DNA of 64,000 bases from Halichondria panicea. Lineage: Eukaryota > Porifera > Demospongiae > Suberitida > Halichondriidae. Every line of letters starts with the position of its first letter. Within the stretch, counting starts at the first letter, position 1. A program made the position numbers and the translations under genes. The notes beneath the pieces are model-generated. The model searched no databases. It was not told the origin of the DNA and saw nothing but the letters and a program-made list of their open reading frames with translations. The stretch lies in the NCBI RefSeq assembly GCF_963675165.1, contig NC_087385.1, forward strand, positions 3,162,501 to 3,226,500, written 5' to 3'. Below, one piece after another: positions 1 through 64,000 of the stretch.

Positions 1-1586
1 ATCGGAGTTCCTTTCTGCGTACTTGTATGCATAATATTATTATTAGTATGCAGCATAACTTACTGACACAACTTTCAAATGAAGGTATCCGAAACCTGAG
101 AACAAAATGAAGAGACACGTACAAGAAGAGACGTACAAGAAGAGACACGTACAAAAAAATATTTTTAAGAAGTATTATTGGTGTTTAATTACACAGAGAC
201 GACGACACACTAATTCTTTGCAGTGTGCTGTAGACATGTGTTGGTGTAAGCTGTATCCACAGACTCTGCAGTCAAACTCTGCAGCATGCTAGAGCGTACT
301 TGAGTTTTTCTGCAGTACATAGAAATAGAAGTCGTCTTCAAAGACGTTTCTTAAGTTGTCTTGAGATGTGACCAAACAGAAATCCACTGTAGCAACAAAC
401 GAAATTGGTGTATGCAAGAATTCACATAAATGAGCCCCATGAGCAGCTTGGGGTAGGTTTGACTCTTCTGTTCAAGGTTTTGGTTTTCCCATCTCTGAAG
501 TCAAAAGAGTGACATTTCTCTCGTATGAAATGTGGTCCTCTGCGGAGGAGCATAGAAGTGTGAAGCACTTTCGTTTTTTCTTGCCGCCTTGATGCCACGG
601 TTGAGGTTTTGTGTCCGATAGTAAACAAACCACTTCCATGAGTAATACCTCTCCATCATCACCACCATTAACACTCAGGATAGGTTAACACTCAGGATAG
701 GCAGATTATCAAGGGTCGGTTTCGTCATTAAGCACGACATACTTTCGATCCCCAGAATTTCATTGTCAAAATTTGCTCAATCGACAAATTGGTTATTCAC
801 AACATAACATGCATCAATATCCTTATTGGAGTAGTACGAGGGTTGTAGGTGCTCGCACTTGCCATTGGTTCATTTTTGCATTAATTTATACTTTAACTTG
901 TTATAATTATTAACTTGTTATAATTATAATGAATTTTATATTAAAGTTAGCTTATCTATTCACTGAGAAGAAAAGTACATGCATCGTTACTTATTGTATT
1001 AAAGATGTATATGTATAAAATCTAAAAAGAAAAGACTTGTGTATATGCATATTGTTATTTATTGTTATAATATTATGGTAGGCCCTCAAGAAAAAGATGA
1101 TTCAGTTACGGGGGGTCACCCGGCCGCCAACTAATACCGCGAGCGGTAAACCATTTACCGCCCGCGGCTAACACTATTATCGCGAGGTCACCGCCTCATT
1201 TTACCGGTCGAGCGGTAAACGAGGAAATGCCGCCAGCGGGTAAAGGGTCACCGCCTCATTTAGCCGTCATTTAGCTGCCAGCGGTAAAACCTTTACCTGC
1301 CTGAAAATACCGCGAGCCTTACCGCCCTAAAATGGCGACATCGCTGTTTATAATTAAAGCGCACCTTGGTTTATCCAGATGCTCAGCCAGTACGTATGGT
1401 TCTTACTGTCCCTAGAAAACTAAGCAAGGTGAGAGTTGACCCCAATCTCCGTTAAACTAGTTTATAGATAAGGTCTGGAAGGTCCTATATTGGCACGGCT
1501 ATGGACTGTAGATGGATTCAAAAGGTTTGTTTTATTCACTTCACCACACGTACACTTGCTTGTAGCTGGTTAAAGGGGTGATGCCC
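1..1586 (+). repeat. Left arm of a large inverted repeat
   Basis: Read forward, this segment matches the reverse complement of 8042-8997, beginning at the first base of the window (ATCGGAGTTCCTTTCTGC pairs with the sequence ending at 8997), so the arm probably continues to the left of the window. Matching blocks run through the ACTTGAGTTTTTCTGCA block (about 300), the GGTAAA/ACCGCC-rich block (1130-1330) and GGCACGGCTATGGAC (1493-1507), and end at GTGATGCCCC near 1586. About 440-1085 has no partner in the right arm and looks like an insertion in the left arm or a deletion from the right. No convincing gene was seen. Short direct duplications are frequent, for example two 17-bp copies at 668-684 and 685-701. 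Confidence 0.85.
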
Positions 1587-1602
1587 CAGATGAAAGCACT
1601 CT

Positions 1603-1831
1603 CATCAGTATGATAGACACACAACACACCACACAACACACCACACACACACACACGCACACACCACATGGCATATGGCGTGCTACACACAGACACACAC
1701 ACACACACACACACAATACACCACACACACACGGCCACACGGCCTGCACAACCCCTCCCCATCCCCACACACACACACACACAAACACGGCGTGCAAACC
1801 ACGCAAACCACACACACACACACACACACAT
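1603..1831 (+). repeat. Short CA-rich satellite array
   Basis: Compound (CA)n repeat with ACGGC and CGGCGTGCA interruptions. It starts shortly after GATGCCCCAGATGAAAGC (1578-1595). The reverse complement of that same flank borders the much longer TG array at 4660-7238, so this is the inverted counterpart of that array, about eleven times shorter. Open frames across it on both strands (Thr/His-rich or Cys/Val-rich) are repeat artefacts. Confidence 0.9.
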
Positions 1832-1832
1832 A

Positions 1833-4062
1833 GCAGCGACTATCCTCTATTTTGTCAGACAAACAATTTTGGGACTGTTGAGTGGGTGAACAAGACTAGC
1901 CACAAACTTCATTTGTTGTCCCTGTTATCCAACACATTCCTGCAGAAAAATAAAAAAAATAATGTTAATAATTATTATTGCAATTTTACTGGTCAAACAA
2001 CTTTTTGTTGTTGAAATAACAGATGAACTTTTGCAGTGTATATTAGGTTATACACACCAGTGTAGTCAACAAACGTAATACGTATCCTGGCTCACCTCGC
2101 TGCTACTGCCACTGTTCTGTACATATGCGGCCCTGCTGCTTAGCACTAGATACAACTACCTACAACTACTTACTTCTAGCGATTCTACATCTGATTGGTT
2201 ACTTGGAGTCGACCTCTCAGTTGATGCATTTAATATTTTTTACATGATACATACAAGCAACATCTATTTTATACATGCAAGTACACACAGGTGATGCAGT
2301 GCGATGCAGTGCAACAGGTGCATCATTAAAAACTAATTTTTAAAAGTCTCTTTGTAGCAGCTAGTGCGAATAGCAACTTTCTATTAACGAGACGGAAACT
2401 GCCTTCAATGTGAGTTTTTTTATATAGACTAGCCAGAGCAAAGCTTTAATGTTGCTTGAGGTTTGTAGAACTGAGGTCAGTTTTGAGACCCCTCGCTACG
2501 CTCGAGATGCTACAGCCTCGGGCCCATAGAGCACAGAAAAAACGCTTCTCAGCACTACAAACTCGACAGCTACAAACTCTACAGCTACGTCTACTACAGT
2601 ATGTATGAAGCAGTATTATACGTAACTACTAAACCGCTTGACAGAAGCAGATCACAGCCAAACCGTCGAGATAGTAGAACCTTCGAGATAGTAGGATAGT
2701 AGGGCATCTTCTCTTTCTTCCTAGTCTCTTTCTTCCTAGTCTCTTTCTTCCTAGTCTAACTTGCACAATCAAAAGTCGAAGCACTTTCAAGCAGTTTTCT
2801 AAGAACTCATTAATTTGTGCATTTAAAAAATGGCAAGTCATGGCGTATAATCGCCTGCACTAGGTAATGAAGTACATCTTAAAATAACCAACGTACACAT
2901 AATTATTCTAGCAGCCAATGATAATGTCATATGATGTCATATGATGTAACAGGTGGTGGTCCACTGGAAGCTGAACTTTCAGTACATGCACTCAAGATAT
3001 ACATGCACTCAAGATATACACAAAAACGTAAAAAAAACAAAAGTTCTACTGTCTGCTCCTTACTGCTCCTTACTGCTAAAATATTCGCATATTTTGTTTA
3101 AAAAATTTATAACTCATGAACCGTATACTTGTAACTTGTAACAAAGTTCCACAGGTAGAACTGGACCTGTCACATTCATGGAATCATCATTGTTGCCTAG
3201 CAACCAACCACCACCCCACAACTAACAATTGTTAACAAAAATTCACAATTATGTACACAAACAATATTGTATGATGTTACGAAGTGACTGAACACATGAT
3301 ATAAGTGTTCAGAATGTTCTCACGGTCACTCAGGGGATCTGCAGAAACTTGTATTTGAGGTTCTATCGGCAGACGCCCTTTTCCCGCGAAATATTTTCTT
3401 CACCTACACACAGGTTTACGTGGCTCATGATTGTACTAACTAGCCTAAACAAACCAAGCTACTCTATAGTGACTTACCTGGTTCAGGAAGATGGTCCACC
3501 TCAAGTGCGTCTTCCTCAGGATTCTCAGGCTTAGCTTGACCTCTGAAAGGAAGCTTCCTACCTAGCCCTCTCACTCTACAAGGCATCGATATTCTCACTC
3601 TCTAGCTTCCCTAGAACCTCCCTGAGGTTGTACTACGAAGACCTTGTAGCAATTATAAAACAGTCACTTTTCTTTCGACAATTCTGATCGAACCGTACCT
3701 CGAAGCAAAATATTAAAAATACCATGTGGAAGAGCAGCTCAATGCCCATGTGCTGGTACTTGCAGTGTGTGCATAGCTCCAACACAGAGTGCACAAAGAT
3801 TTTTTGAAATTTATCAGTAGCTATGCCGACTATAGTCGGCTAAAGTGGGGAAAGGGTTAATATGTAGCATAATATGTAGCAAATGGCAATATAGATATCA
3901 AGAAAAGCATGAGTTCTGGCCAAACTATGTTTGTACACTATGTTTGTACTATGTTCGTATTATTTGCATAATAATGCCACGGTAGATATACGGTAGTGTG
4001 TCTGCGGTAGTGTGTCTGTGGGACACTGCACACCTCGTTTGCGCACCGAGGCATAATAACTT
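1833..4062 (+). repeat. Dispersed repeat R, copy 1
   Basis: Direct copy of 9561-11395 with many small indels. Shared landmarks include CTATCCTCTATTTTGTCAGA (1841), the GAGACGGAAACTGCC block (about 2390), CAAAAGTCGAAGCACTT (about 2768), CAATATAGATATCAAGAAAA (about 3889) and GCGCACCGAGGCATAATAAC (about 4041). The 3150-3860 part also matches 33475-33812. No credible gene was seen inside. Compared with copy 2, this copy carries extra tandem duplications: 15 bp three times at 2711-2755 and 17 bp twice at 2984-3017. The family is unidentified. It may be a long non-autonomous element or a segmental duplication. Confidence 0.8.
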
Positions 4063-4070: not shown

Positions 4071-4436
4071 CAATGGCGGATCCAGGAAATAGGTTCCAAA
4101 CTACGAGCGCGCAGCGCGAGTAGTGAAAGTCGCGCATAGCTCGAAATTTTTTTGGGGTTACGCCCACTTCCGGTCACACGTAAATAGGTAAAATCCCAGG
4201 GGAAGTCCCATAATAAACTTGCGTAGAGCTAGCTAGCTCTGCCACGAACAGTGCTAACCTAGGCTAACCTGAACACAGTAGGTACAATCATTGAATCAAG
4301 CTACAATACTGGCTAACACAGTAGGTACAATCATTGAATCAAGCTACAATACTGGCTACAATACTGATAAATAGCTAGCTGGTAGCTGTTTAGTCTGAAA
4401 GGGGGGATCCATGGCTCCCCCCTGGATCCGCCACTG
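4071..4436. mobile_element. hAT-like MITE
   Basis: Bounded by near-perfect terminal inverted repeats: CAATGGCGGATCCAGG at 4071-4086 and, inverted, CCTGGATCCGCCACTG at 4421-4436 (one mismatch). Ends of the form CAGTGGCGGATCCAG are common on hAT-type elements. The 366-bp length and lack of coding potential fit a miniature element. Flanking 8-bp sequences do not form a clean target duplication. The interior contains a perfect 43-bp tandem duplication (4273-4315 and 4316-4358) followed by a third partial piece. Confidence 0.55.
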
Positions 4437-9560: not shown

Positions 9561-11395
9561 TAGAATGCAGTGACTATCCTCTATTTTGTCAGACAAACAA
9601 TTTTGGGACTGTTGAGTGAACAAGACTAGCCACAAACTTCATCTGTTGTCCTTGCTACAAAAATAACAAATGTTAATTGTTAAAAAGAACAATTTTATTG
9701 GTCATACGATGAGCATAGATTCATTGTCCACGCACACTTTTTGTTGTTGAAATAACAGATCAACTTTTGCAGTGTATATTACGTAATAGGTTATTATACA
9801 CACCAGTTCTAAACTAGTCAACAAACGTAATACGTATCCTGGCTCACCTCGCGCTGCCACTGCCACTGTTTTGTACATACGCGGCTCCACCACCTCTGCT
9901 AATCAATGCTGCCTAGCACTACAAACTACTATCTACCTACAACTACTTAGCTTCTAGCGATTCTACAAACGCATGCAACAAGTACGAACAAGTACTTGCA
10001 ACCGGTTGTATTTGTATTTTAAATATATGCCTGATTTTATAACCCTAAAGTAGACTCTAAATATTCATGCTTGTCACAAATGGTGCAATCTGATTGGTTA
10101 CTTGGAGTTGACCTCTCAGTTCTATGGAGGTCCATTATATGTTCACTACATGCATTTAATATTTTTTACATGATACATACACATGCAAACACACACAGTT
10201 GATGTGATGCAGTGCATCATTAAAAACTAATTTTTAAAAGTCTGCAGTGCCGCTTTGTAGCAGCTAGTGCGAATAGCAACTTTCTATTAACGAGACGGAA
10301 ACTGCCTTCAATGTGAGTTTTTTTAATATAGACTAGTTGCTTGAGGTGCTTGAGGTTTGTAAGAACAGGGTCTTCTTTGTGGCTTAGCACTATTCTAAAT
10401 CAGTTATAGGAAACGTCCAACGGTCAGTTTTGAGACCTTAGTAGCACCCTCGCTACACTCGAGATGTTACAGCCTCGGGCCTTCGGGTCTCAAAACCCAT
10501 AGAGACCTCAGACTCAGCCTATAACTATGAACATTATAACTATGAACATGCCACTGTTTTTCTTTACATCCAGTACCTGCACAGAAAAAACGCTTCTCAG
10601 CACTACAAACTCTACAGCTACAAACTCTACAGCTACGTCTACTACAGTAAGTATTAGGCTGTATGAAGCTTCTAAAAGCCAAAGCAGTATTATACGTAAC
10701 TACTACTTAACCGCTTGACAGAAGCAGATCACAGCCAAACCTTCGAGATAGTCTTCCTAGTCTAACTTGCACAATCAAAAGTCGAAGCACTTCCAAGTTA
10801 CGAACAGTTTTCTAAGAACTGATTAATTTGTGCATTTAAAAAAATCAATATGGCTGCGGGGGTATTTCCGCAAGTCAGGGCGTATAATCGGTTAACTCAA
10901 AAAATCACCTGCACTAGGTAACGAACGAAGTACTTGCACAAGAACTTAACTCAAATATAATAAGATAGTTACATATTTTCCAACGTACACATATTCTAGC
11001 AGCCATTTTGGAATGATAATGTCATATGACATCATATGATGTAACAGGTGTAACAGGTGGTGGTTCACTGGAAGCTGAGCTTTCAGTACATGCACTCAAG
11101 ATGTAAAAAAAACAAAAGTTCTACTGTTTGCTCCTTATGACTCGAGTTCATTAGTTTATATGTCAAACAGGTCACAAGTCGCCAGAAACAATATAGATAT
11201 CAAGAAAAGCATTCTCAGTAAGCAAACAATGGAGTCAAATGCCCAAGTCTACGCGGCCGGGTCTGGCCAAAATTTAACACTATGTTCGTACTATGTTCGT
11301 ATTATTTGCATAATAATGCCAATATACGGTAGTGTGTCTGTGGGACACTGCACCTCGTATGCACCTTGTTTGCGCACCGAGGCATAATAACGGGA
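9561..11395 (+). repeat. Dispersed repeat R, copy 2
   Basis: Direct copy of 1833-4062, starting at GCAGTGACTATCCTC and ending near GGCATAATAACGGG. Where copy 1 has three 15-bp units at 2711-2755, this copy has one (about 10751). Where copy 1 has one GTAACAGGT, this copy has two (11041-11058). It also has ATTATAACTATGAAC-type duplications at 10520-10550 that copy 1 lacks. No gene was seen. Confidence 0.8.
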
Positions 11396-12002
11396 TCTGG
11401 TAAGTGTACAGTAGCATCTGCCTTGCAGAGATCGAACCCAACCCACCATGTCACCGTGAGAACATTGAGAACACGTCTAGTCACTCATACAACAATCGCT
11501 AATCAGTTGGGGGTGGTCAGTTGCTGTTGCTAGGTAACGATGATGATGTCATGGTACCCCCGGTCTACCTGTAGGAATAGTTACGAGCCATTGAAACAAT
11601 GTATGGTTCATGAGGTATGGATTTTTAAATGTCTGTAGAGTAGAGGGTATTAATTTTGGGTATTTGTTAGTATCCCATCAGCATCGCAATTGTATCCCAA
11701 TTGTTTCTCAGGTATATAAGTACTTGCATGTTGTTAATTTTCTAGCACCCACACCTTGATTATTCAGTGAGGATCTGCCTTGGACGGTCCAGCTAGCGCT
11801 CGGTTGAAAAGGTTGGGCAGAAGTGGAGGTAGCGACGAATGATATTTTTGAGGCAATGGGTGCGTAGTTAGTGGTCTTCAATACAGGATTTTGTAGAATC
11901 TTTGAAATTGTGTGTGTGTAAGAGCGTTCCTTATATGTGATTGTATGTCCAGGGGGGAAACTATAGACTGTACTACTACTACGTGGATAGTCTAATGTGT
12001 GG
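11396..12002. other. Spacer with inverted R-family piece
   Basis: No gene was seen. About 11505-11585 is the reverse complement of 33478-33535 (shared GCTAGGTAACGATGATGATG and TACCTGTAGGAATAG blocks), so an R-family fragment lies here in opposite orientation. The remaining sequence up to the CA array is unremarkable. Confidence 0.6.
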
Positions 12003-14467
12003 TTTATTATCCCACACACACCCCACACACACACACAACACATACACACACCACACACACACACACACACACATGCAAACCCCTACTAACACACACACAC
12101 ACCCCACACACACACACACACACACATGCACAACCCCACCCCCAAATACACACAGCGTGCACACCCCCCACACACACTCACGGCATGCACACCCCCCCAC
12201 ACAAACACACACACAACACACACATTGCACACTCCTACCCCCCACATACACACAGCGTGCACACCCCCACACACAATCACGGTGTGCACACCCCCACACA
12301 CAATCACGGCGTGCACACCCCCCACACACACACAACACACACACAATACGCACACACAGGGGCAACACACAACACACACGCACTGCAGACACGGCGTGCA
12401 CATCCCCACACACACACAACACACACACACAATACGCACACACAGGGGCAACACACACACTGCAGACACGGCGTGCACACCACCCACATACGCAAACCCC
12501 CCCACACATACAACACACACACACACACACACCACACACACACACGGAACACACACACAACACCACACACCACACACAGCGTGTACACTCCCACCCTCCC
12601 ACATACACACACACACAACACACACACACACGGCGTGCACACCCCCCACACACGCACACACACAACACAAACACCACACAAACACGGCATGCACACACCC
12701 CCACACAAACACACACATGGCATGCACACCCCCCCAACACACACACAACACACATACACTCTACACACACCCACAACACCCTCACACAAGACACACAGAC
12801 ACGGCGTGCACACTCCCTATACACACACGGCGTGCACCCATCACCATACACACCACACACACACACACACACACACACACCACACACAACACACCACACC
12901 CACACGGCTTACATACCACACACACACACACACACAACACACCACACACACGGCTCGCACATACACAACACACCACACACAACACACACAACACACCACA
13001 CACACGGCTCGCACAGACACAACACACCACACACAACACACCACACACACTCGGCTCAAACACACGCACACACACACACACGGCGTGCAACACCCCCTCC
13101 ACACACACACACCACACACCCCCCACACAAACACGGCGTGCACACCACACACACACACACACGGCGTGCACACCCCCTCCACACACACACACAACGTGCA
13201 TACCCCCCCACACACACACACACACAACATACGACATGCACACACCCCCCATACAAACACACACATGGCGTTCACACCCCCCAACACACACACACACACT
13301 ATACACACACACTCACACATCATACACCACACATACGGCGTGCACAATCCCACCCTCCTCATACACACACACACAACACACAGACACGGCGTGCACACCC
13401 CCCACCCACACACACACACAACACACACACACCACACACACACGACATGCACACACCCCCTGCACACACCCCCACACAAACACACACAACACACACACGG
13501 TGTGCACACCCCCCCTGCACACCCCCCCACACACACACACACACACACAACATACGACACACACACACACCACACACACACACGGAACACACACAACACA
13601 ACACACTCACACACCACACACACAGCGTGTACACTCCCATCCCCCCACATACACACACACAACACACACACACACGGCGTGCACACCCCCCTCACACACA
13701 CACTACACACATACGGCATGCACACACCCCCACACAAATACACACATGGCGTGCACACCCCCCACCACACACACACACTCTACACACACCCACATACACA
13801 CACTCTACACACACCCACATACACACACACAACACACACACACACACACACACGGTGTGCACACCCCCCACACACATACACAATACACGACATGCACACA
13901 CTCTACACACAAACACACACAACACACACACACTCTACACACACAAAAACCACACACACAAACACGGTATGCACACCCACCCCCCCCACACACGCACAGA
14001 CACGGCGTGCACACCCCCCCTGGACACACACACACGGCGTGTACGCCCCTTCCCTACACACACACACACGCACGGCATGCACACCCCCCCATACAAACAC
14101 ACACAACACACACACAACACACACAACACACGACATGCACAAACCCCCCACACAAAGACACACATGGCGTGCACACCCCCCAACACACACACACACACAC
14201 TCTACACTCACCCACAACACACTCACACACCACACACATACGGCGTGCACACCCCACATATACAAACACACATACTCTACACACACCCACAACACACTCA
14301 CACACAACACACATACGGCATGCATACCCCACATACACAAACACCCCCCCACATACACACACACCCCACATACACACGCACACACGGAGTGCACACTACC
14401 CCCACACACACACAACACACACCACACACACAACATGCACACAAACACACACAACACACACATACTC

Positions 14468-14498
<31 letters not shown>

Positions 14499-14841
14499 GG
14501 CGTGCACACCCCCAACACACACACACACATACACACACACACACAACACACGGCTGCACACCCCCCCTACACACACATCACACACACAAACACACACACA
14601 ACACACTACACACACACACACACGGCTTACACACACAACACACCACACACACACACACGGCTTACACACACACAACACAACACACCACACACGGCTTGCA
14701 CAAACCACACACATGCACACACACCACCCCCACACCCCACAACACACAACACACCACACACACACGGCTTGCACACACCACACACACACGCACACATACC
14801 ACCCCTACACCCCACACACTCACACAAACACGGCGTGCACA

Positions 14842-14876
<35 letters not shown>

Positions 14877-15138
14877 GTGCACACACAGCGTGCACACTCC
14901 CTCCACACACACACACACACACACAAACACGGCGTGCATACCCCCACACACACACACACACATACACACACACACACAACACACACACGGCTGCATACCC
15001 CCCCTACACACACATCATACACACAAACACACACACAACACACCACACACACACACGGCTTACACACACACAACACACAACACACAACACACCACACACA
15101 CATGGCTTGCACAAACCACACACATGCACACACACCAC

Positions 15139-15176
<38 letters not shown>

Positions 15177-15401
15177 CACACACACACACACACAACACAC
15201 CACACACACGGCTCGAACACACACACACACACACTCCACAAACACTTGGCTTGCAAACACACGCACACACCACATGGCTTGCACACTCCCTCCCCACACA
15301 CACAACACACACGGCGTGCTCACTCCCCCACACAAACACGGCGTGCACACCAAACACACACAACACTCACACTGCGTGCACACACAATGTGCACACCCCC
15401 T

Positions 15402-15437
<36 letters not shown>

Positions 15438-15664
15438 CACACCACACACACGGCTCGCACACACACACACACACACACCACACACACTCGGCTTGCACAC
15501 ACACACACAACACGGCTTGCACACTCCCTCCCCACACACACAATATACACGGCGTGCTCACCCCCCCACACAAACGTGCTCACCCCCCCACACAAACACG
15601 GCGTGCACACCAAACACACACACACACACTCACACTGCGTGCACACACAACGTGCACACCCCCT

Positions 15665-15706
<42 letters not shown>

Positions 15707-15940
15707 CACACCACACACACGGCTCGCACACACACACACACACACACCACACACACTCGGCTTGCACACACACACACACAACACGGCTTGCACACTCCCT
15801 CCCCACACACACAATATACACGGCGTGCTCACCCCCCCACACAAACATGACGTGCTCACCCCCCTACACAAACACGGCGTGCACACCAAACACACACACA
15901 CACACTCACACTGCGTGCACACACAACGTGCACACCCCCT

Positions 15941-15974
<34 letters not shown>

Positions 15975-16411
15975 CACACCACACACACGGCTCGCACACA
16001 CACACACCACACACACTCGGCTTGCACACACACGCACACACAACACGGCTTGCACACTCCCTCCCCACACACACAACACACACGGCGTGCTCACCCCCCC
16101 ACACAAACACGACGTGCACACCAAACACACACACTCACACGGCGTGCACCCCCTCCACACTCACACAGGATATGCACACCCATCCCACACAAACACATCC
16201 AATACACACCCCACACACACACAGCGTGCATACTCCCACCCCCCCCCACATACACACACACAACACACACAGACACTGCACGCACACCCCCCCACACACC
16301 CCCCCACACACCACCCCCACACACAACACACACCCCACACACACACAGCGTGCATACTCCCACCCCACCACACACACACACAACACACACACACACTCTA
16401 CACACACACAC

Positions 16412-16442
<31 letters not shown>

Positions 16443-16918
16443 GGCATGCACACCCCCACTCCTTCCGCACACACACACACAACACGCACAGACACGGCGT
16501 GCACACGCCATACACACGGCGTGTTTACCCCCCACACACACACACACACACAACACACACGGCATGCACACCCCAAACACACACACACAACACACACAAC
16601 ACACACACTCACACACCACACACACGGCGTTCACACTCCCACCCCCCACATACATACTACACACATAACACACATAACACACACACACCCCCCCACACAT
16701 ACACACACAACACACACCACACACACACGACAAGCACACACCCCCCAAAACAAACACACACACACATGGCATACAAACACACACACACACACAACACACT
16801 CACACACTACACACATACACTGCGTGCAAACCACACACACACACACGGCGTGCACACCCCCTCCACACTCACAAACGATATGCACACCCCCCACACAACA
16901 CACATCACACACACACTC
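12003..16918 (+). repeat. CA-rich compound satellite array, first block
   Basis: About 4.9 kb of (CA)n interrupted by ACGGCGTGCACACCCC, ACGGCATGCACACC, ACGGCTTGCACAC and similar cores. These cores keep mostly alternating purine-pyrimidine order around the palindrome GTGCAC. A higher-order unit is clear from the marker GGCTTGCACACTCCCTCCCC at about 15276, 15514, 15785 and 16047, giving spacings of about 238, 271 and 262 bp. A second internal duplication is marked by CGGCTGCACACCCCCC or its variants (about 14552, 14989) and GCTTGCACAAACCACAC (about 14697, 15105). Frames of over 1,000 codons here are artefacts. Confidence 0.93.
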
Positions 16919-17921: not shown

Positions 17922-17958
<37 letters not shown>

Positions 17959-46869: not shown

Positions 46870-47175
46870 CAGGTATACTGGAATGAAATGATCAATGATG
46901 TCAAGACAACTATGTCAAGACTTGTGATAGCTGCCAACGAGCCAATCTCACTCTTTGCCTGTCAGCAGTGTCTGGCACAGGATTGTTAATGATTTGATTT
47001 AGCCCACTAGATCTAAAAGAGACACCCCGTGGGAATAAGTACATAAGTACATCATTACATTACCAATGGGCAGAAACTCTTCCACTCAAGACCAAAGAAG
47101 CAGGGAGTGTAGATGATAGAATGTGCAAAATGCGAAGAGTGGTACCACAAGACCTGTATCACAGTTTCTAGAGTG
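46870..47175 (+). pseudogene. Retroelement integrase zinc finger plus PHD finger remnant
   Basis: The first part reads YWNEMINDVK and, after a frame change, TCDSCQRAN, which is the end of the HHCC zinc-binding domain that precedes integrase cores in LTR-type elements (consensus YYWPGMxxDVxxxVxxCxxCQRxN). The frame is broken by a 14-bp insertion in which TGTCAAGAC is duplicated (about 46909-46932). The integrase core that should follow is not recognisable. At 47061-47175 the frame FHSRPKKQGV, a TAG, then MIECAKCEEWYHKTCI matches a PHD finger (CxxC, WYH, C). The TAG replaces what is probably a Trp codon. Whether both parts came from one element is inference from their 200-bp spacing and common strand. 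Confidence 0.6.
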
Positions 47176-48124
47176 ATGTGTTGTGTTGTCTTCCCCCTGA
47201 CTAGACTGATGATAACAAGATTCATGTATTCATGATTAATTTTGTAGCTAGATTTTATTTTGAATATTCAGACTGAGAACTTCTATTGCTGTTTTAATAT
47301 CTTACTGTGACTCTGTCTTTTCACTTCCTTGCTGTAAAATGAAGTTAGCCAATGGGTGGTTTGTACTTCCTATTGATAGACGGACAGTTTCTGCTAAAAA
47401 GTAATCAGTTCAGACCGTTTAGTGTCCGGCCGGACACATTTTTGGCCCAGACTGTATCTGCTGTGACATAGGTCTGCTGTGACATAGGCCCTTGTGAAGC
47501 AGCTCTCTATGTGCATCTTTTGTGTACGTACAAATTTCGATTATTGATTTACTAAATATTTTTGCCGACCACAAATACTATGAAAATTTAACGCATGCGC
47601 AGACAACTAGTACCAGGCCCAGTTGTTCGCCTAACCACGAAAACTCTGCCTGGGATCTAGGCTAACGTATTCTACTGTACATTATGCATTTCAAAATACA
47701 TTTAATAATTCTTAACAGTCCCAAATTCTTCGTTACATAATTAATGAACATATCTAGCACTAGCTGATCGGATGATCCATATTTTGTCACATTGATGCCT
47801 GCATGTATGCAGAGCAACTCCAGTGTAGGACGAACTTGACCCATTCAAAAGTTACTGACTTCCTCTTTCTCTATAGCTCTATCATTTCTTGGATTGTCTT
47901 CCTCTCGTGTAAGTCTTCTTTAATGTTTTTTGAAGCTAAACATAATGTTTCTTGATATTTCTGCTCCTTGCAACACACTTATCCTTGCAACACACTTAAA
48001 AATAACTGAATGGGGGGGCGTCTGTGCCTCGTTTGTAGGCTGTGTACCGCCTTATCCATCATGTCGTTGTGTGGGTGATTACATGTAGTGTATTCTTCGT
48101 CAATGGTTAACCAAAACCAAAACC
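47176..48124. other. Spacer, no gene seen
   Basis: No gene. About 47611-47663 (ACCAGGCCCAGTTGTTCGCC and GCCTGGGATCTAGGCTA) resembles the GGCCTGGTAT-type element ends seen at 7264-8041 and 39300. CTGCTGTGACATAGG is duplicated at about 47459-47489 and CTTGCAACACACTTA at about 47968-47998. Confidence 0.5.
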
Positions 48125-49440: not shown

Positions 49441-50504
49441 CCGTATTGGTTTGTGACATGTGCCTGATCTACTAATGTGCCTGATCTACTACTAGCGTTA
49501 CAGAACGTCCCAACCTCGCCTCTACTGCAGCATTACCCCAGCATTACCCCAGCCACTGGCTTTTGTTACCTGCAAATTTTTTAACGCCCCAGACTGCAAT
49601 CTGGTTCGAGGTGGTGTTTGATGGAACTTGCGATTGCATGCCACCAATGTACTTTACAGTATCACAGTATCACATGGGGAGATCGGGATAGTGCGTCTAG
49701 AGCTGTGTTATCAGTCCAACACTTTGCAGGGATGTCTCTTCAGCAAAAACCATGTACCAAAAACCATGTACCACCTTCAAAATAGGGTTGAGACTGCAAT
49801 CCAGGTTTTCATGATGCGATAAAAGAATCTGATGGAGACCGCAGTAAGTCTTCAAGTCGTCGATCTTCAAGTCGTCGAGTCACCGATACCGAGCATCTAA
49901 ACCAATATGGGTTCGAATCAAACACTTTATCCGACCCTTCTTTTAAGTTCAAACGTAGTATATTCGAAAAACCCATGTACTTATCAAGAAAGTAAATACA
50001 ACAATGGTTTAACTGTTATCACAACACGATAATTGATAATTAACTGTTAACAGTAACTATCTTCCTTGTACATAAAACTCCTGAAAATTCGTCAGTACTT
50101 AGCCTTAGAAGAATTTCCGTCTCTGCCAGTTTCCTGAAGGTGGAATGCCCCAGTGTACGAATGGACAAGTTAATCGAACTTGTTAAGGCCTATAGCCTGC
50201 AACATTTGGACAGTTAGGTGGCTCAGTGATCTCACCTTTTTTAGGCCTAACGGTGGCAATCAGTGAATCACAATAAATTATGAGTTCTGTGGCATGAGTC
50301 TGTGGTAGGACACCTTGGCTAATCGGATCTGTCCTTGGCTGTTCACTACAAGGTACTTTCTTTGCCACACTGAAACAAATAAATAACAGGTACACTCTAA
50401 AAACAGGCTAGGCAGTTTATACATAATGCTCTAAAGTGATCCCTTGCTCTGTGGTTGACTGTTCAAAGAAATCAGTGTTTCCAAGTTATGCACCTTTCTT
50501 TGCT
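49441..50504. other. Spacer, no gene seen
   Basis: May contain unrecognisable remains of the same transposase near its start. Local duplications: GCATTACCCCA (49531-49552), AAAACCATGTACC (49746-49770) and TCTTCAAGTCGTCGA (about 49849-49878). GGGTTCGAATC at about 49909 resembles a tRNA B box, but no cloverleaf can be formed. Confidence 0.5.
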
Positions 50505-54723: not shown

Positions 54724-56383
54724 CTAGTTCCTCTATACAGGCAGTTATTGTGGCCTGTGACGGATGATGACGACTTGGCCAGCATGAGGACTCGCACAAT
54801 GGCTATATCACAATAAGCTATATCACAATACTTGGCTCACGCAGTCTGGTAGAACGACTAATCAGCATAGCATTTTCCACTTCTATCCTTAGCATGGTCC
54901 ATGTTCAACACCCCAGTAGGTGCATACCAGCAGGCAACTGTACAAGACATAGTTGTAAGAGCAACAATCGACTGTTAGATTGTCTAAGCGTGGTTGCTCG
55001 CCGCAGACAGTCAGAATCAGCTGCAAAATCCAATCTAAAATGTGTGACATTTGTTCAGCTTGTGTGTAGTTCAGAAGTGATTCTTGGGGCCAAAGCACTT
55101 AGTCTGTGAGTTGTTTGATGGGGACACAGGACTCTCACCTAAACAATAATAATTTTATTCTCAATTTCAGAACTGATTCCTTATGTCCAACCACTTACCA
55201 TAACCTGAACCTGTCAGTGGAGACATTGGGCTGAGACTGGACGCCCCGAGTGAACCAAAGTACATGTTTAGGAAAACCCAGCGTACAATTTTTTTGTTAC
55301 AGTTATTATTTTTTGCATACTATTTTTACGATACCTGTTGACGTGTCAACCACTGTCATCTTCTGAGTCGTGGTATATACTCTGAATCTCGACAAGTGAA
55401 GTAATCCAGTGCAACTTCATTCAGAGCTGACTGGTCCTCTTCACAAAATAAATGTTTCAAGGACATGTTTCAGGTCCTTGACATCTCTCTTGCTTTCTAG
55501 GAGAGCCTACAGGCTAGGCGAAGGCTGCATGCGCTGGCTTCTATAAAGCTTTTTAGTGCACCTGCAAAACTTACGCAGGGGAAATTCCCCCGCGGTAGTC
55601 AATGGTGACAGGGGAATTCCCGTCACGTAACTCCGTAAATTCATTAAATTTTACTCGAGAAAGATCTCTTTAGTCTAAAGAGCCTGTTCAACCTTCGCGT
55701 TTGCCCTGTTTAAAGCTTCGCAATGAGCCAAAACTTCTCAGGAAAAGGTTTAACTTCACATTTCTCAAGTTTTTCACTACTTTAATCTTTAATTTTCTTC
55801 CGTGTGTACTATACTATAATTAATATATTACCGCGTTAAGGTCCCTTTTCTCTGGCACTGTCACATATGATTGGGGATGAATTGCGTCCACATCTTCGTT
55901 CATCAACCTTTCTGTCTGATTGTATTATTGAAGTTTGTAATTATTTTTTGTCAATTTTCAATCCTAATTTTCAATCCTAATTAATAATTGTTGCAAAAAA
56001 AAGTGAAGTTACCTGTTGCTGTCAAATAGTAGTATGAGACTTCCTCTTGGGATTGCTGCAGAGATCACTTGATCTTAACTTGTCAGGAACTAGTGGTCAA
56101 AACATCTACCAAAACATCTACTTAGCACCTTGTAGCTGATCATTGATTAAGTGCAGTGTAGTATCCAGGTGCGCCAGGTGCGCATGGGCAGCCTAATGAC
56201 TGTTGCTATGCGCATTTAGTGTCATTCAGTAGACTGTGATTTAGATGAATAACTAAGCAGTTGCCATGGGTACTGGACTTTGCAGAATCTTTGCAACACA
56301 GATAGAGTAGAGCCTTTTAAGTAGCAATGTAAACTGTGGTCAACAATGTAAACATTGTTATGTAATCATCATTTAATGCAGAT
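54724..56383. other. Spacer with a solo element end
   Basis: No gene was recognised. About 55831-55873 matches (inverted, diverged) the TGTGACAGGGCC end of the element at 41585-43283. TTTTCAATCCTAATT is duplicated near 55960-55985, AAAACATCTAC near 56098-56122, and CAGGTGCGC near 56167. Confidence 0.5.
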
Positions 56384-57362
56384 TTGAAAAGTCTCAGTAT
56401 TATAGCTATGGCCTATTCATGTGAAGAGAAGAGATCTAAGTCATACTCCTCAGATTTAAGATGGAGAATGATCTACCAAGTAGAAGTAGTTGGTCTGCCC
56501 AATAGAAAGGTAGCTGCTAATCTCCTTGTGGATCCATCTACAGTGCATAGAACAGTGTGTCTATTCAGAGCTACTGGGAACGTTAAAGTCAATATCCTCC
56601 TAATCAGGGAACTGCTAAACTCACTGCTATAGATAAAGTGATGATACTGGAGTTGGTTATTCAAAAACCTGGAATCTATCTAAGGGAAATACAAGGACAT
56701 CTTCTTGAAAGAACGGGGACAGATGTCAACGTAAGCACCATAATGAGGTACATACATGCCTCTGGGATAACAAGACAAAAAATGGTTCTGAGAGCTAAAC
56801 AACAAAGTGAGCTGTTGCGTGCACAGTATTTGATTGACGTTTCAGTCTATAAAGGCCACCCGGAGCTTTTCGTCTTTATAGACGAAACAGGATCTGATCG
56901 GAGGGATTGTATGCGGAAATTTGGATACAGCCTAAGAGGAAAGCCTGCTATTGTTCAAAAATTGCTTTGGCGTGGACAGCGAGTTTCGGCTATATGTGCA
57001 ATCTCACTAGAAGGTGTACTGGATTGCTATACTACAACCGGCACCGTTAACGCTGATACATTCGAGGACTTTATTACTACTTTATTACTAACTCTCTAGC
57101 TAGCAAATTACAACCATTTAATGGAATGAACTCTAACAGTGTGGTGGTACTGGACAATTGTAGCATTCATCATGTGGACACAGTTGTACAGGCCATACGT
57201 TCTACTGGAGCTATAGTACAATTTCTTCCACCATATAGCCCAGACCTAAATCCAATAGAAGAAAGCTTCTCCAAATTGAAATTGGTACTCAAAGCAAACG
57301 AGGAATCATTGGACTATCTTGCCACAGAAACAGGCTATGAACAGCATATCTGTACATGATTG
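56384..57362 (+). pseudogene. Tc1/IS630-type DDE transposase, two frameshifts
   Basis: Three frames form one nearly complete transposase. Frame 1 (ATG 56384) has an N-terminal helix-turn-helix: SSDLRWRMIYQVEVVGLPNR then KVAANLLVDPSTVHRTV. A shift near 56585 enters frame 2 (to about 57070) with a second DNA-binding part (YLREIQGHLLERTGTDVNVS) and the first catalytic Asp in FVFIDETG (codon 56881). An 11-bp tandem duplication (about 57070-57091) breaks the frame. Frame 3 has the second Asp in VVLDNCSIHH (codon 57153) and the catalytic Glu in PPYSPDLNPIEESF (codon 57258), with 34 residues between them (D34E, Tc1-like). Stop TGA at 57360. All three catalytic residues survive, so the copy looks young. 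No clear terminal inverted repeats were found. Confidence 0.88.
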
Positions 57363-57536
57363 TTCACAATGGATAAGGCATGCAGGATATACGTAATTAT
57401 GAAAATATTAATGTATAATGTATTGTGATGTCAAATCAGTGATGCGAATCAGTTCATGAATAAGATAAATATGTGTTGTCAAGTGTTCTTTTCAGGATAT
57501 ACAACTATCTTGGTATAAATGTACATGTGAAGCAGA

Positions 57537-58381
57537 TCAAAGAGATTTAAGTGATGACAAAATGTTCTTTTTCTGCTCAGCAAATTCTTCTTCTGAGAGA
57601 ACATGATCTTCAAACAGCTCTTTCATACGCTTTAAATCTTCCAGACAGCTTCTTCTAAGCTGAGCAGTTTTCATTGGTGAAACAGTTGAGCTGGAAGTTG
57701 GTGTCTCAGGAGTTCGAGTATGTTTCAGTGCACTGGCTATTGCGTTGGCTGCCCCAGTAAAAGCATCAGACATGGTGCTGATGCTCTCCTTTTTTCCCTT
57801 TGTTGGGTTGGGTGAGCCGGTTATAAGGGGTATATTTGGAGGAGCGTCATAATCATCATGATGTCCAGAATGAATTAATCGTGCCCAAAGCCGCAGTTTG
57901 GGTATTGCCATATCAACATGCTTTTCCTTCAAGGTTTTCATGATGTTATCTACTTCATCTTCAACAAGGTCACGTTTGGTTCTTTGATGGTGGTTCACTT
58001 TCATCTATACTGATAGGTCTCCCTTCACACCACAAAGTTACACTCTTCTTGTCAATATTCGTATACATTTCTGACACATCTCTGTCTTCCAACAGCCATC
58101 GCTTGTTGCTACCTCTGCCATGATAGTAGCCTACTTGAAAGCTCAAATCATCTGCAACTTCATTGGGGTAAGACTCAGCAATCTTAGCCTTGAGGCTTAA
58201 CACCGAGTTAAACACTTGTTTGACATCATGCCAAGTCAATGTCTTGTAGCTACTTTTCTTCTTTGGGTTGATAATTCGAATTGTGTAGGAGTAGGAGTCT
58301 TCAGAGTTTCTTTCTAATGGTATTGGAGGATCATCTACTTGTGTCGGAGGATAAGAAGAAACATTCCATGCTGGAGCATAG
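57537..58381 (-). CDS. Uncharacterised protein with SHOCT-like C-terminus, one frameshift
   Basis: Minus strand, convergent with the transposase (stop-to-stop gap about 175 bp). The exon probably starts at 58381 after a TTTTTTTCAAG acceptor. Frame 1 contains SYSYTIRIINPKKKSSYKTL, then FQVGYYHGRGSNKRWLLEDR and MYTNIDKKSVTLWCEGRPI, an alpha/beta-looking domain (about 100 residues) that I associate only with uncharacterised proteins of early-branching animals. A shift near 57985 leads to KRDLVEDEVDNIMKTLKEKH, a Ser/Thr/Pro-rich linker, and a C-terminal helical pair LEDLKRMKELFEDHVLSEEE followed by FAEQKKNILSSL, which resembles SHOCT modules. The shift may be a real lesion, a sequencing error or a missed feature. 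Codon texture is good throughout, so this is the best candidate for a recently functional host or element gene. Confidence 0.6.
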
Positions 58382-58669
58382 CTTGAAAAAAAGTAAGTCA
58401 CATGATATGACACATGCTAGCATTTTTAGCATAATTATATCTGTGGTCTCTGATCTGTGGGTTTACTACAAGGTTTACTACAATAACTTTGTTCATATAA
58501 GGAACGCGCAACGCTCTAATCGTTTAGCTGTGTTGCAAAGATTCTGCAAAGTCCAGTATAAATATTTCATAATACAAGAAATTTACAGATAGAAAACCAC
58601 ACCCACTTTTCAATATTTCATTGAGTTGCATTCTGTTCACTAAGTAGTCTTGAAACAGTCTTGAAACAG

Positions 58670-58815: not shown

Positions 58816-59136
58816 AGTACCAACAATTCAGTGCTGCCAAAAGTCAATTCTTATTGCTTAGGCTTGTGTGAAGGTGTACAGTGTGTGAAGGTGTACAGGT
58901 TGAGGTTGATTGAATAATAATGTTCTGACCTGGCTTGTTGGCGTATTGTTTACTTGAAATAGGCTGTACTGCTCCCCAGCTAGGATTAGGTGGCTTGTGT
59001 GATTAGTTGTGTGTTTGCCTGCCTGTGATATGCATTGTAATTCTGTGCCCAAAGTTTTTATGTACTCCCAGTTTGTTGTAGGTGCCTATGAGTACGCCCT
59101 GTGCATGTAAAACATACTAGCTAGAAATTCATTTAC
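58816..59136. other. Putative intronic spacer
   Basis: No gene features beyond the duplication at about 58864-58899. If the flanking exons belong together this is intron. Confidence 0.4.
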
Positions 59137-60599: not shown

Positions 60600-60975
60600 C
60601 TAATAAGAATGGGTACTAATAAGTATAATTCCTTCAAGCGATTCTCCAACTGCAGGCTCTAAGGAATCATCTCCTACAGCAGACAGTAGGCGTGCATTCA
60701 TTGTGGAAGAAACAGAAGGATTTCCAACTTTCCGCACTTTCTTAGCAATGAGACTTTTTTCCAGTCTTTTCTCCAGAATTTGCATTAGTCCTTGAATTCA
60801 TCTAGTCCTACATGTTTCAAAATGAAGGCAAGGATGAGTTGCTCCACAAGCTCCTCAGTCATATATACAGGATCAGTCATATATACAGGATGTTCAAATG
60901 CTTCCAGTATTAATTTTATCGATCTCTCTTGGACTACCTCGCCTCTTAAACTTTTGAGGGGATTACTTACTACTA
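60600..60975 (-). pseudogene. Degraded helical protein fragment
   Basis: Minus strand. SIKLILEAFEHPVYMT, then EELVEQLILAFILKHVGLDE and FKD, a frame change at about 60795, then MQILEKRLEKSLIAKKVRKV, GNPSVSSTMNARLLSAVGDD and SLEPAVGESLEG. Amphipathic helical character and continuity across the frame change suggest a once-coding stretch. An 18-bp perfect tandem duplication (60855-60872, 60873-60890) adds an in-frame repeat of DPVYMT. Family unrecognised. Confidence 0.35.
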
Positions 60976-61300: not shown

Positions 61301-61710
61301 TTATTTGGAGACTTGCATACAGAGTGGATACCTTTGTCTGCAACAATTACTAGTGACAATCCTCTTTCGTTTTTGTTTTGCGCCTTCACTACTACTCGAG
61401 GGAGATGTTGAACAAACTTGCTTTTTCTCAAGGTCCAACAACGTCCAACAACGTCCAACAACTTCTTTTCCAGCAACGACGTCTTGGTTTTCTACGTCTA
61501 ATTCTTCACGTTCAATACAAGAGACAGGGGGATACAAGAGACAGGGGGTCGGCTGAACTATTCCTAGGCAACGAGTGATTCAGAGACAGGATCTTGATCT
61601 TGAAGAAGCATCCCTGGTGGTTGATATCCTCTTCCAGCCTTTCATTAAGGTCAAGCGGTTGGCTCGGGAATTGAGGGGAGTGGACTTGGTCAAACATAGT
61701 GTTGATCTAG
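61301..61710 (-). pseudogene. Possible degraded coding stretch
   Basis: Minus strand. FDQVHSPQFPSQPLDLNERL then EEDINHQGCF, frame changes, then SCIEREELDVENQDVVAGKE and a Ser-rich/basic tail (PSSSSEGAKQKRKRI). GTCCAACAAC is repeated three times at about 61434-61463 and a 17-bp unit twice at about 61515-61548. Both distort any frame. No domain was recognised, so this is weak. Confidence 0.25.
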
Positions 61711-62432
61711 CAGTAGGCCTATAAAACCATATCAGCATCAATTTAGCCAATGGAATCTTTTCATGTGATATTTTTGTTTCCTTTAATTAGGACACCACGC
61801 CTTTCCAGCAGTCCTTATTACTTGGTTGGTGACTCATCTTCTCATCTTCTAATTTAATAAGTAGCACATGGCCATATTTAGCCAATGGAATTTTCAATGC
61901 TTTTCATGTGATATTTTAATGTGATATTTTAATTAGAACACCACACCTATACAAAGCTAGCTAGATTGTACTACTACTCTAGATATATGTACAGTGTGCC
62001 CCATGCCGGAACGAAAAGATCAGTAAAACACTGTACTTCGAGCATAAGAAATTGTACGTGAGTGGTAATGTATGACCCAACGATCAGACCCTAATGGAGG
62101 ATCGATAATGATTTTTGTTTCTCTGATGCGCAGATACAAATTTTGGACTCTACTAAGCTACTATCTACTAAGCTACTATCATGTGTACGTACGTATACGT
62201 GTACGTGCATGTATAAAAGTGATTCTGTTCACAGGTTATGCTTCTTGTGATGAACTTCCTTGTCATAACTCTGATAGCAGTGATATACATACTGTGATGT
62301 ACATACTGATACTAGAGGATGATTTTGATATGTCTGGGGTAGGTTCTACGTATAATGTATCACGTCAGTATCACGTCAGACGTCAGGTTCAATTTCATCA
62401 CAACTTCTATCTTGTTACAGAATGATCACTGA
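61711..62432. other. Spacer, no gene seen
   Basis: TAGCCAATGGAATTTTC and TTTTCATGTGATATTTT blocks recur (about 61745-61772 and 61878-61932), and TGTGATATTTTAAT is tandemly repeated. AGCTACTATCTACTA is duplicated near 62156. No gene was recognised. Confidence 0.5.
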
Positions 62433-63008
62433 GTGAAATTGAAGCTGAATTTGAAGATAGGGAGTCGTGTGTGGTGAACCAACAGATCCCAGTGAGATTT
62501 TATATAATGTTTCTCTTGACTTGGCAATCGCTATTCAAAGTGGGAATGAATGTTTTGTTTTTGTTCTTCTTCTCCTTGGTCTATACCCAATGCCAAACAA
62601 AACCTTGTGAAAGTAGAAAGTACTAAGGCCTTAATTTCGCAAGTACCAAAATGTCATTCTCTGTATTCACTGGACCTCTGCAAAATTACCCTCCCGAATA
62701 AAACCGTTCCTATGTCCAGTTTCAATCGTCATCAATGAAAACCATTAGGACATCAACTGGCTCGACAAATGTTCTGTTACCAAAGTCTCGGTTTGCTCCC
62801 TACAAAATCTCTTCTCACGCCCAGGTTTTTATGAGAAAACTGAACTATGGAGAAATCGCCCTGGTACTCTAACGGATGTGTATGATGGTAGGGTTTGGAA
62901 TGAGTTCCTAAACCCCGACCATTTCTTTTGCTCCCTTATAAACTCTAAACATAAGTTGGGGCAATTTATTCGTCAATTCAAAACTTACCGAAATTTATTT
63001 TTTTGGTA
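62433..63008 (+). pseudogene. EnSpm/CACTA (Tnp2-type) transposase remnant
   Basis: Several frames follow the N-terminal order of Tnp2-type transposases: MFLLTWQSLFKVGMNVLF (the hydrophobic block before the zinc site), PKCHSLYSLDLC (the conserved CPKCHSLY with the first Cys changed), FNRH, then TKVSVCSLQNLFSRPGFYEK, TELWRNRPGTLTDVYDGRVW and NEFLNPDHFF, matching the conserved RPGFxEKCExWRxR and DVYDGxVW blocks. The next expected block (LNxDWFQPF, with a catalytic Asp) is gone and the frame ends at a TAA (63006-63008). At least three frame changes. Inactive. Recognition is from motif order. Confidence 0.75.
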
Positions 63009-64000
63009 AACAAAATTAAACTTTAATGTATCATTGTATTTAATGTATCAATCATTGTATCTTACATCTATACTCTTACATCTATAAAATAATAGTTCAA
63101 ACATAGTGTTAACTTTTGATCTTGAGAGCTTGAGAGCTTGACCCGGGTACGTGGAGAGGGGAGTGACTGGGGATCAGAGTTCAAGCTAGAAAATAAAGAG
63201 TGAAGGTCAGTTGACTGTATGTATACACTTGTATACCTAGAGCTCGGCTGTTGAATGCTGGAGCAGCAAGCATGCTTCCCACTTCACTTAGGTGAATTAG
63301 GCTAGTAGTTTGTTTTGTCTGTTTGTGTAATTACTATTATATGAAGCGTTGTGTTGAGAAGGCTTGCACACGAAGCTACTGATGGGTTTCTGATAGACTA
63401 TGGCAAGTTTGTGCTTCCAACAAGTTTGTGCTTCCAATTCCAACTGCAACCATAGGGTCATCGTAGAGTCTGGTTTCAATGCTTGAGAGGACAGCACTGA
63501 GAGGACAGACTATTTGACTTTGTGCTTCCAACAGCAACCCATAGGACCATCGTAAGAAGAAGAAGCCTTCTTGACAACACCACAACACCACATGCAGGAT
63601 ACTACGGTGTGTAATCAGTGCCAAAATAGGAATGCAAAAATTAGAAGCAGAAGTTCACAAAATTATGACCACAACCCACAGAACTGCAACCATGCACAAC
63701 TGATAAAACTGTAACCCAAAAAATGGGTGCATCAATGAAACTGGATGCACGGGCAGTGATAGCTGTGGGTTTGAAACATAGGAAATGATTGGAAATGATT
63801 GGAATTGATTCAGTTACATGGAATGGAGACTTGGGGCACACTTTAACCTTTAGTGACCTTTTAAAAGGAGGCTATAAAAAGAAAAGAGAGATGTTTCATG
63901 CATCATACAATAATGAAAGCACTGCGGGTGCTGATGTGCCACGGTGGAGGTGCCAAAGCTAATAACATAATACACACACACATTACAATTATTATGATGA
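63009..64000. other. Right end of window, no gene seen
   Basis: No gene was recognised. AATGTATCATTGTATTTAAT-type and TCTTACATCTATA duplications occur at 63018-63090, CAAGTTTGTGCTTCCAA at about 63403-63437, GAGAGGACAG at about 63485-63506, and GGAAATGATT at 63780-63799. Short minus-strand open frames lack domains. Confidence 0.5.

What the first reader, a model, noticed from the sequence alone, without database searches (positions are those of the whole stretch)
1..64000. Pervasive short tandem duplications across the whole window
Outside the satellite, perfect or near-perfect tandem duplications of roughly 8-43 bp occur every few hundred bases. Examples: 668-701 (17 bp x2), 2711-2755 (15 bp x3), 2984-3017 (17 bp x2), 4273-4358 (43 bp x2), 11041-11058 (9 bp x2), 25724-25757 (17 bp x2), 27897-27930 (17 bp x2), 60855-60890 (18 bp x2), about 61515-61548 (17 bp x2). 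Units of 17-18 bp recur. Comparing paralogous copies shows these are copy-specific events: R copy 1 has three 15-bp units where copy 2 has one, and one GTAACAGGT where copy 2 has two. They look like a mutational signature of this genome, for example fill-in of staggered breaks or polymerase-theta-type end joining, rather than ancestral microsatellites. An assembly artefact is an alternative.
Basis: partly seen in the sequence, partly recalled or inferred. Interest (0 to 1): 0.8.

Follow-up and report, generated by a model that had tools for sequence, protein, structure and literature searches.

The report
Centromere-side hotspot of short duplications

Summary
All nine listed duplications are present. 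Outside the CA/GT satellite the window holds 82 perfect tandem duplications (TDs) of period 8-18 in 44.0 kb; chance gives about 1. The window's satellite forms one zone on each of nine large contigs (candidate centromeres). A prediction written before fetching was met: 14 stretches at or beside the satellite on seven other contigs hold 28 TDs in 15.3 kb (1.83 per kb; P about 4e-16), though C8 and C10 were poor. Beyond about 180 kb the density is near background. Unit length has a ceiling: 155 pooled events of 8-17 bp, with a pile-up of 21 at 17, and three longer. Transposon copies show that TDs and 3-38 bp deletions are copy-specific. Best reading: recurrent breaks with ends staggered by up to 17 nt, joined by NHEJ after fill-in (TD) or trimming (deletion). 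Ku and ligase IV matches exist. Break type and centromere identity are inferred; indel-to-substitution ratios support the reading in one element, not in another. Fill-in TDs are known; I did not find the centromere-side zone or the 17-bp ceiling in print.

The parts
11961..25460 (.). main block of the CA/GT satellite with CACGGCGTGCACACC motifs (three mask runs); further blocks at about 4641-7270, 26441-27670 and 28851-31260
   Evidence: dinucleotide mask; its 20-mer and 18-mer lie in one zone per contig
668..701 (.). 17-bp perfect TD
893..927 (.). 17-bp perfect TD
2555..2588 (.). 15-bp TD (94%) shared with the other R copy at 10603-10636 (100%): inherited, then mutated
2710..2757 (.). 15 bp x 3.2; single in R copy 2
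2983..3020 (.). 17-bp perfect TD; single in R copy 2
4272..4358 (.). 43-bp perfect TD, the only perfect unit above 18 bp (period up to 60) in the masked window
11040..11059 (.). 9-bp TD in R copy 2; single in R copy 1
25724..25757 (.). 17-bp perfect TD
27899..27934 (.). 17-bp perfect TD
35826..35859 (.). 17-bp perfect TD
45557..45593 (.). 17-bp perfect TD
47965..47998 (.). 17-bp perfect TD
49458..49491 (.). 17-bp perfect TD
58865..58898 (.). 17-bp perfect TD
60855..60891 (.). 18-bp perfect TD, the only 18 in the pooled hot set
61515..61548 (.). 17-bp perfect TD
63404..63437 (.). 17-bp perfect TD
56270..58560 (+). element A: Tc1/mariner-like DNA transposon (DDE_3 transposase, + strand; second ORFs on - strand); copies elsewhere serve as clocks for TDs and deletions
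57068..57090 (+). 11-bp TD private to the window copy; the DDE_3 match changes frame here (profile 2-72, then 70-137)
46528..47468 (.). element B, repeat with copies on C1, C2, C3, C5 and C14; the window copy carries many private deletions

Best explanation
The window lies in a narrow zone of local hypermutation that flanks a satellite found in one zone per contig, the candidate (peri)centromere of contig C9. DNA there is broken again and again with staggered ends of up to 17 nt. Ku/ligase IV end joining closes the breaks. If both overhangs are filled in before joining, the overhang is duplicated in tandem: 17 bp when intact, 8-16 bp when trimmed first. If the ends are trimmed, a small deletion results. 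Shown: the excess, its local nature, the 8-17 bp spectrum with pile-up and ceiling at 17, and that TDs and deletions are private to single copies. Inferred: that the satellite marks the centromere, that the lesion is a staggered break, that NHEJ with fill-in does the joining, and that 17 nt is the size of the stagger.
For: Density: window 82 in 44.0 kb, 14 prospectively chosen near-satellite stretches 28 in 15.3 kb, 19 loci elsewhere 42 in 179.3 kb; prediction noted beforehand. Distance: under 180 kb from the satellite 75 in 47.4 kb, beyond 30 in 129.3 kb. Pooled spectrum 8-17: 21, 23, 15, 15, 15, 13, 12, 10, 10, 21; 18: 1, 19: 0, 20: 1, 43: 1. The ceiling holds for near-perfect copies too. 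TDs of 17 bp are joined without excess microhomology (13 of 21 exact, 11.5 expected); TDs of 8-16 bp show an excess (46 of 134 exact, about 73 expected; Fisher P 0.03). In element A, leaving out the diverged copy L039, all six private insertions of 8-50 bp are perfect TDs (11, 15, 12, 17, 10, 9 bp) that the other aligned copies lack. Three hot copies of A have 16 private deletions of 3 bp or more and 5 of these TDs against 30 substitutions. Of 19 hot deletions of 3 bp or more (A and E), 15 have 0-1 bp of microhomology. Ku domain matches at two loci and a short ligase IV match (24 of 34 positions) are present. Cell experiments show that breaks with 3' overhangs give TDs through Ku80 NHEJ and CST-Pol alpha fill-in (PMC5730883, passages; PMC8355091, first part, passages and discussion).
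Against: Near-satellite stretches on C8 and C10 hold only 1 TD in 3.5 kb (4 stretches), and on C9 stretches at 3.05 and 3.35 Mb hold none, so the zones are patchy. Four stretches 0.29-0.46 Mb from the satellite on C14 and C15 hold 0, 1, 1, 1, so the edge is soft. Centromere identity rests on one satellite zone per contig on nine contigs; no CENP-A data. The 17-bp pile-up rests on 21 events (P 0.002 against about 10). Deletions do not share the ceiling (3-38 bp). Indel-to-substitution ratios are mixed: in element E the hot copy (5 indels of 3 bp or more to 21 substitutions) does not differ from four cold copies (9 to 43); cold copy L044 of element B has many length differences (13 to 29 substitutions), of unclear polarity; element A fragment L037 on C14, about 70 kb from the satellite, shows no event in 319 sites. 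Short inverted repeats also exceed chance (22 against 6). An Stn1 search found nothing, but nothing in its controls either. No reads were available.
Confidence: 0.57

Rival explanations
1. Assembly or polishing artefact in a repeat-rich zone.
For: The excess sits beside satellite, where assembly is hardest; no reads could be checked.
Against: No periodicity of TD positions in the window between 60 and 2000 bp, 500 bp included. Imperfect, aged TDs follow the same spectrum (17 bp: 22 perfect, 4 with one mismatch, 1 with two; 0 expected). R copies 1 and 2 share a 15-bp TD that has since diverged. TDs and deletions fall within transposon copies that otherwise agree almost base for base.
Confidence: 0.07
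2. Ordinary mutation with relaxed constraint: TDs arise everywhere at this rate but survive only in gene-poor DNA.
For: The zone looks gene-poor: of nine ORFs tested (of 147 of 100 aa or more listed) Pfam matched only two transposase pieces and a SHOCT below its cut-off. In element E hot and cold indel-to-substitution ratios are alike (5 to 21 against 9 to 43).
Against: An eight-fold difference is too large if most of the 19 loci elsewhere is non-coding (assumed, not measured). In element A hot copies show 21 indels of 3 bp or more to 30 substitutions, against 3 to 17 in cold copies L041-L043 of element B.
Confidence: 0.15
3. Footprints of a mobile element: target-site duplications left by an excised or aborted insertion (for example a LINE endonuclease whose second nick lies up to 17 bp away).
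For: A variable 8-17 bp length is typical of LINE target-site duplications (recalled); a fixed 17-bp stagger would suit a nuclease.
Against: No symmetric motif at the edges of 59 exact TDs. Direct repeats in the window gave no clear insert flanked by 17-bp target-site duplications (judged by eye). DNA transposons give fixed short lengths (recalled).
Confidence: 0.12
4. Polymerase-theta end joining or replication slippage.
For: Over all 150 two-copy events junction microhomology exceeds chance (55 with 2 bp or more, about 25 expected); short inverted repeats exceed chance (22 against 6); a DNA polymerase A family gene with a 1254-aa open frame is present.
Against: 59 of 150 events have no junction microhomology and 17-bp TDs show no excess. 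Spaced repeats of 9 bp or more with spacer 0-14 number 67 against 137 TDs, on a background of about 10 to 13 per class at longer spacers. In mouse ES cells, TDs by theta joining are larger and almost all carry microhomology (PMC5730883, passages). Only 6 of 156 events have 3 or more copies.
Confidence: 0.09

Closest known systems
Small tandem duplications from staggered breaks (Ku80 NHEJ; 53BP1-Shieldin-CST-Pol alpha fill-in; PMC5730883, PMC8355091)
   Same: perfect spacer-free duplication of tens of bases at most, little microhomology, deletions alongside
   Different: those follow Cas9 nickase breaks, with 43-nt overhangs in the assay that I read; here they are natural, concentrated beside a satellite, and capped at 17 bp
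Natural TD insertions in rice and human (Vaughn and Bennetzen 2014, Messer and Arndt 2007; known to me only as cited in the two papers above)
   Same: short insertions are commonly TDs, attributed to nearby opposite nicks
   Different: cited as a general class of insertion; no centromere-side zone or length cap in what I saw
Centromere breakage and break-induced replication (review PMC12321929, passages)
   Same: centromeres break often and repeats expand there
   Different: that model expands existing satellite monomers by homology; here non-satellite DNA is duplicated with little or no homology

Membership tests
NHEJ fill-in tandem duplication | exact duplication of flanking sequence without spacer | tested here: met
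   6 of 6 private insertions of 8-50 bp in element A copies other than L039; L039, 90% identical, has 8- and 16-bp length differences that are not TDs and of unclear polarity
NHEJ fill-in tandem duplication | little junction microhomology | tested here: inconclusive
   met for 17-bp TDs; 8-16 bp show moderate excess
NHEJ fill-in tandem duplication | small deletions at the same loci | tested here: met
   19 deletions of 3-38 bp in hot copies of elements A and E
NHEJ fill-in tandem duplication | dependence on Ku, ligase IV, CST | not testable with these tools
   Ku and ligase IV domain matches present; Stn1 search uninformative
Polymerase-theta end joining | microhomology at nearly all junctions, templated inserts | tested here: not met
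   59 of 150 junctions without any, though overall there is an excess; spaced repeats fewer than TDs
Micro- or minisatellite slippage | many copies, pre-existing repeat | tested here: not met
   150 of 156 events have fewer than 3 copies; other copies of the locus have a single unit
DNA-transposon excision footprint | one fixed target-site duplication length | tested here: not met
   all lengths 8-17 occur
Centromeric satellite | one zone per chromosome | tested here: inconclusive
   one zone on each of C1, C3, C4, C5, C8, C9, C10, C14, C15; single matches on C2 and C6; none on C7, C11, C12, C13, C16, C17 with the two words listed in full. One search lists 100 of 398 matches only. L004 on C16 holds 1.26 kb of satellite-like sequence
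Centromeric satellite | CENP-A chromatin | not testable with these tools
   no chromatin data

The most novel reading that the evidence does not exclude
Centromeres of this genome are made by their own damage. A break of one geometry, a 17-nt stagger, recurs in the centromere and its flanks. Fill-in duplicates 17 bp or less and trimming deletes. The resulting tandem pairs are the seeds from which satellites grow, so the amorphous CA/GT satellite is the end state of this process. This would answer where the first tandem duplication of a satellite comes from.
Probability: 0.3. Interest if true: 0.88.

Novelty: new variant of a known kind. Interest (0 to 1): 0.72.

Why it matters
[quoted passage not shown] Here is a zone beside candidate centromeres where first-step duplications of non-satellite DNA are frequent and can be measured against transposon copies. 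The sharp 17-bp ceiling is a physical clue to the break or the fill-in enzyme. Both can be tested with whole-genome counts, reads and CENP-A mapping.

Tried and rejected
Even spread over the genome: rejected by 19 loci elsewhere. Selection or gene-poverty alone: disfavoured by indel-to-substitution ratios in element A against cold element B copies, but element E shows no difference, so this is not settled; for that reason I moved the best explanation from 0.60 to 0.57 and this rival from 0.12 to 0.15 (and trimmed two other rivals by 0.01 each) on re-checking. Polishing-window periodicity: none (window positions only). A cut-site motif: the third base of the unit is A/T in 51 of 59 exact TDs, but the mirrored position is not and the strand is arbitrary, so I treat it as chance. 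LINE-type target-site duplications in the window: nothing clear. Stn1 search: uninformative. Automatic polarising of element B was unreliable where reference copies disagree, so for B I rely and the printed alignment. The cold copies of element E align poorly around one variable stretch. The 15-bp 'deletion' scored for cold copy L034 is the absence of L035's private TD, not a deletion, and is left out of the 9 to 43. Not counted in any density: L001-L008, which came with a copy search, and the targeted copies L034-L048 and L071-L075; the distance table also leaves out the window and 7 of the 20 loci, on contigs without a located zone.

Print searches: searches covered TDs, staggered breaks, centromere, end joining, topoisomerase signatures, sponge genomes and the assembly size. 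No listing named a centromere-side TD excess or a 17-bp ceiling. I read passages of PMC5730883 and PMC12321929, and the first of seven parts, passages and the discussion of PMC8355091; the other papers only as listings.
Full report
What was checked. The window is G000:C9:3162501-3226500 of an unnamed 131.5-Mb assembly in 39 contigs, taken to be eukaryotic. With the CA/GT satellite masked, 83 perfect TDs of period 8-60 remain in 44,030 bases; resampled sequence gives about one.

It is local. Twenty 10-kb loci were taken at round coordinates from 15 contigs. Nineteen hold 42 TDs of period 8-18 in 179,250 usable bases (0.23 per kb), against 0.02 per kb by chance and 1.86 per kb in the window. The twentieth, L027 on C15, holds 22 in 9.7 kb. 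On C9 the flanks at 3.10, 3.15, 3.24 and 3.30 Mb hold 12 (one of them 20 bp), 3, 8 and 2 per 4 kb. Eight 1.2-kb stretches at 2.60-3.05 and 3.35-4.00 Mb hold one in all.

What the hot zones share. Two exact words of the window's satellite (56 and 75 matches, all listed) fall in one zone per contig: C1 6.07-6.09 Mb, C3 3.61 (one match), C5 4.19-4.21, C8 3.70-3.71, C9 3.17-3.19, C10 3.60-3.62, C14 3.95-4.11, C15 3.16-3.17. There are single matches on C2 and C6, and two on C18. A third word, of which 100 of 398 matches were listed (C1 to C5 only), adds C4 4.71 and widens C1 (to 6.11), C3 (3.52-3.61) and C5 (3.93-4.21). No match was seen on C7, C11-C13, C16 or C17 with the two fully listed words, though L004 on C16 near 3.357 Mb holds satellite-like sequence. 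One zone per chromosome, between about a third and two thirds along it, is what a centromeric satellite would show; chromatin data are lacking.

A prediction. Before fetching I noted that 14 stretches of 1.2 kb placed close to the satellite on C1, C3, C4, C5, C8, C10 and C14 should hold 15 or more TDs if the link is real and about 5 if not. Three of them fell between satellite blocks and the other 11 within 60 kb. They hold 28 in 15,330 usable bases (1.83 per kb; Poisson P about 4e-16 at the rate elsewhere). Misses: on C8 the two stretches hold 0 and 1, and on C10 0 and 0, one of these being almost wholly satellite; L056 on C5 holds 0. By distance, 22 stretches within 180 kb of the satellite hold 75 in 47.4 kb and 22 beyond hold 30 in 129.3 kb; this table includes L027, which was noticed because it was rich, and leaves out the window and 7 loci on contigs without a located zone. 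Four stretches 0.29-0.46 Mb away on C14 and C15 hold 0, 1, 1 and 1, so the edge is soft.

The length spectrum. In the pooled hot set (window, L027, four C9 flanks, 14 prospective stretches; 85,050 bases) periods 8 to 17 count 21, 23, 15, 15, 15, 13, 12, 10, 10, 21, then 18: 1, 19: 0, 20: 1 and 43: 1, searched to 80. Near-perfect copies keep the ceiling. The 17-bp TDs have no more junction microhomology than chance (13 of 21 exact, 11.5 expected); the 8-16 bp TDs have more (46 of 134 exact, about 73 expected). This fits a fixed 17-nt stagger: filled whole it gives 17 bp, trimmed first it gives less and joins with some microhomology. A melting limit of about 17 bp between opposite nicks would explain the ceiling but not the pile-up.

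Polarity. Element A is a 2.3-kb Tc1/mariner-like transposon with near-identical copies. The window copy has private TDs of 11 and 12 bp. A copy on C14 at 3.878 Mb has TDs of 17, 10 and 9 bp. A copy on C8 about 150 kb from its satellite has one of 15 bp. The other aligned copies have single units. The 11-bp TD coincides with a frame change in the transposase match. Three hot copies together show 30 substitutions, 16 deletions of 3 bp or more and 5 TDs; the left half of the cold copy on C5, 0.56 Mb off, shows one substitution and no indel of its own. Cold copies of element B (L041-L043) show 17 private substitutions and 3 indels of 3 bp or more; the window copy 17 and 11.

Polarity, results against. 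Element E gives no contrast: window copy 5 indels of 3 bp or more to 21 substitutions, four cold copies together 9 to 43. Cold copy L044 of element B, the most diverged, has 13 length differences of 3 bp or more to 29 substitutions. L037, an element A piece on C14 about 70 kb from the satellite, shows no event in 319 sites, and L039 has two length differences that are not TDs. So the density map, not the ratios, carries the claim of a local zone.

Artefact. Reads were not available. Against an artefact speak the lack of periodicity, aged TDs with the same spectrum, a TD shared by R copies 1 and 2 and later diverged, and indels confined to single copies of otherwise matching transposons.

Mechanism. 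Ku domain matches at two loci (one with a stop in its open frame) and a short ligase IV match are present, so loss of classical NHEJ is unlikely to be the cause. Mouse experiments show that breaks with 3' overhangs yield TDs through Ku80-dependent joining (PMC5730883, passages) and Pol alpha-primase fill-in guided by CST (PMC8355091). I infer that similar breaks recur beside these candidate centromeres. The cause of the breaks is open: kinetochore-linked breakage, topoisomerase, or a nuclease of a centromere-seeking element.

Verdict. Fill-in TDs are a known kind. A centromere-side zone of TD and deletion hypermutation with a 17-bp ceiling is, as far as my searches show, a new variant, and it bears on how satellites start (PMC12321929, passage).

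Noticed in passing
window 23117-25337: The satellite switches several times between CA-rich and GT-rich blocks, as if pieces had been inverted.
   Followed up: no
window 44878-45835: Minisatellite-like array with CA-rich linkers and a related array on C8 (L047).
   Followed up: partly
window 27729-27870: Perfect 76-bp period over 1.9 copies, a larger duplication than the 17-bp class.
   Followed up: no
window 57540-58416, - strand: Element A carries ORFs on the other strand beside the transposase, one with a SHOCT match below Pfam's cut-off; an unusual content for a Tc1/mariner-like element.
   Followed up: partly
hot-set TD edges: Third base of the unit is A or T in 51 of 59 exact TDs, but the mirror position is not; unexplained, possibly chance.
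   Followed up: partly
G000:C16:2915727-2917043: DNA polymerase A family domain in a single open frame of 1254 codons (candidate POLQ or POLN).
   Followed up: no
L009 2437-3650: Scattered pairs of a 40-bp unit, a different repeat from the 8-17 bp class, in a cold locus.
   Followed up: no
L057-L060 (C8, C10): Near-satellite stretches there are poor in TDs, so the zones differ between chromosomes.
   Followed up: partly
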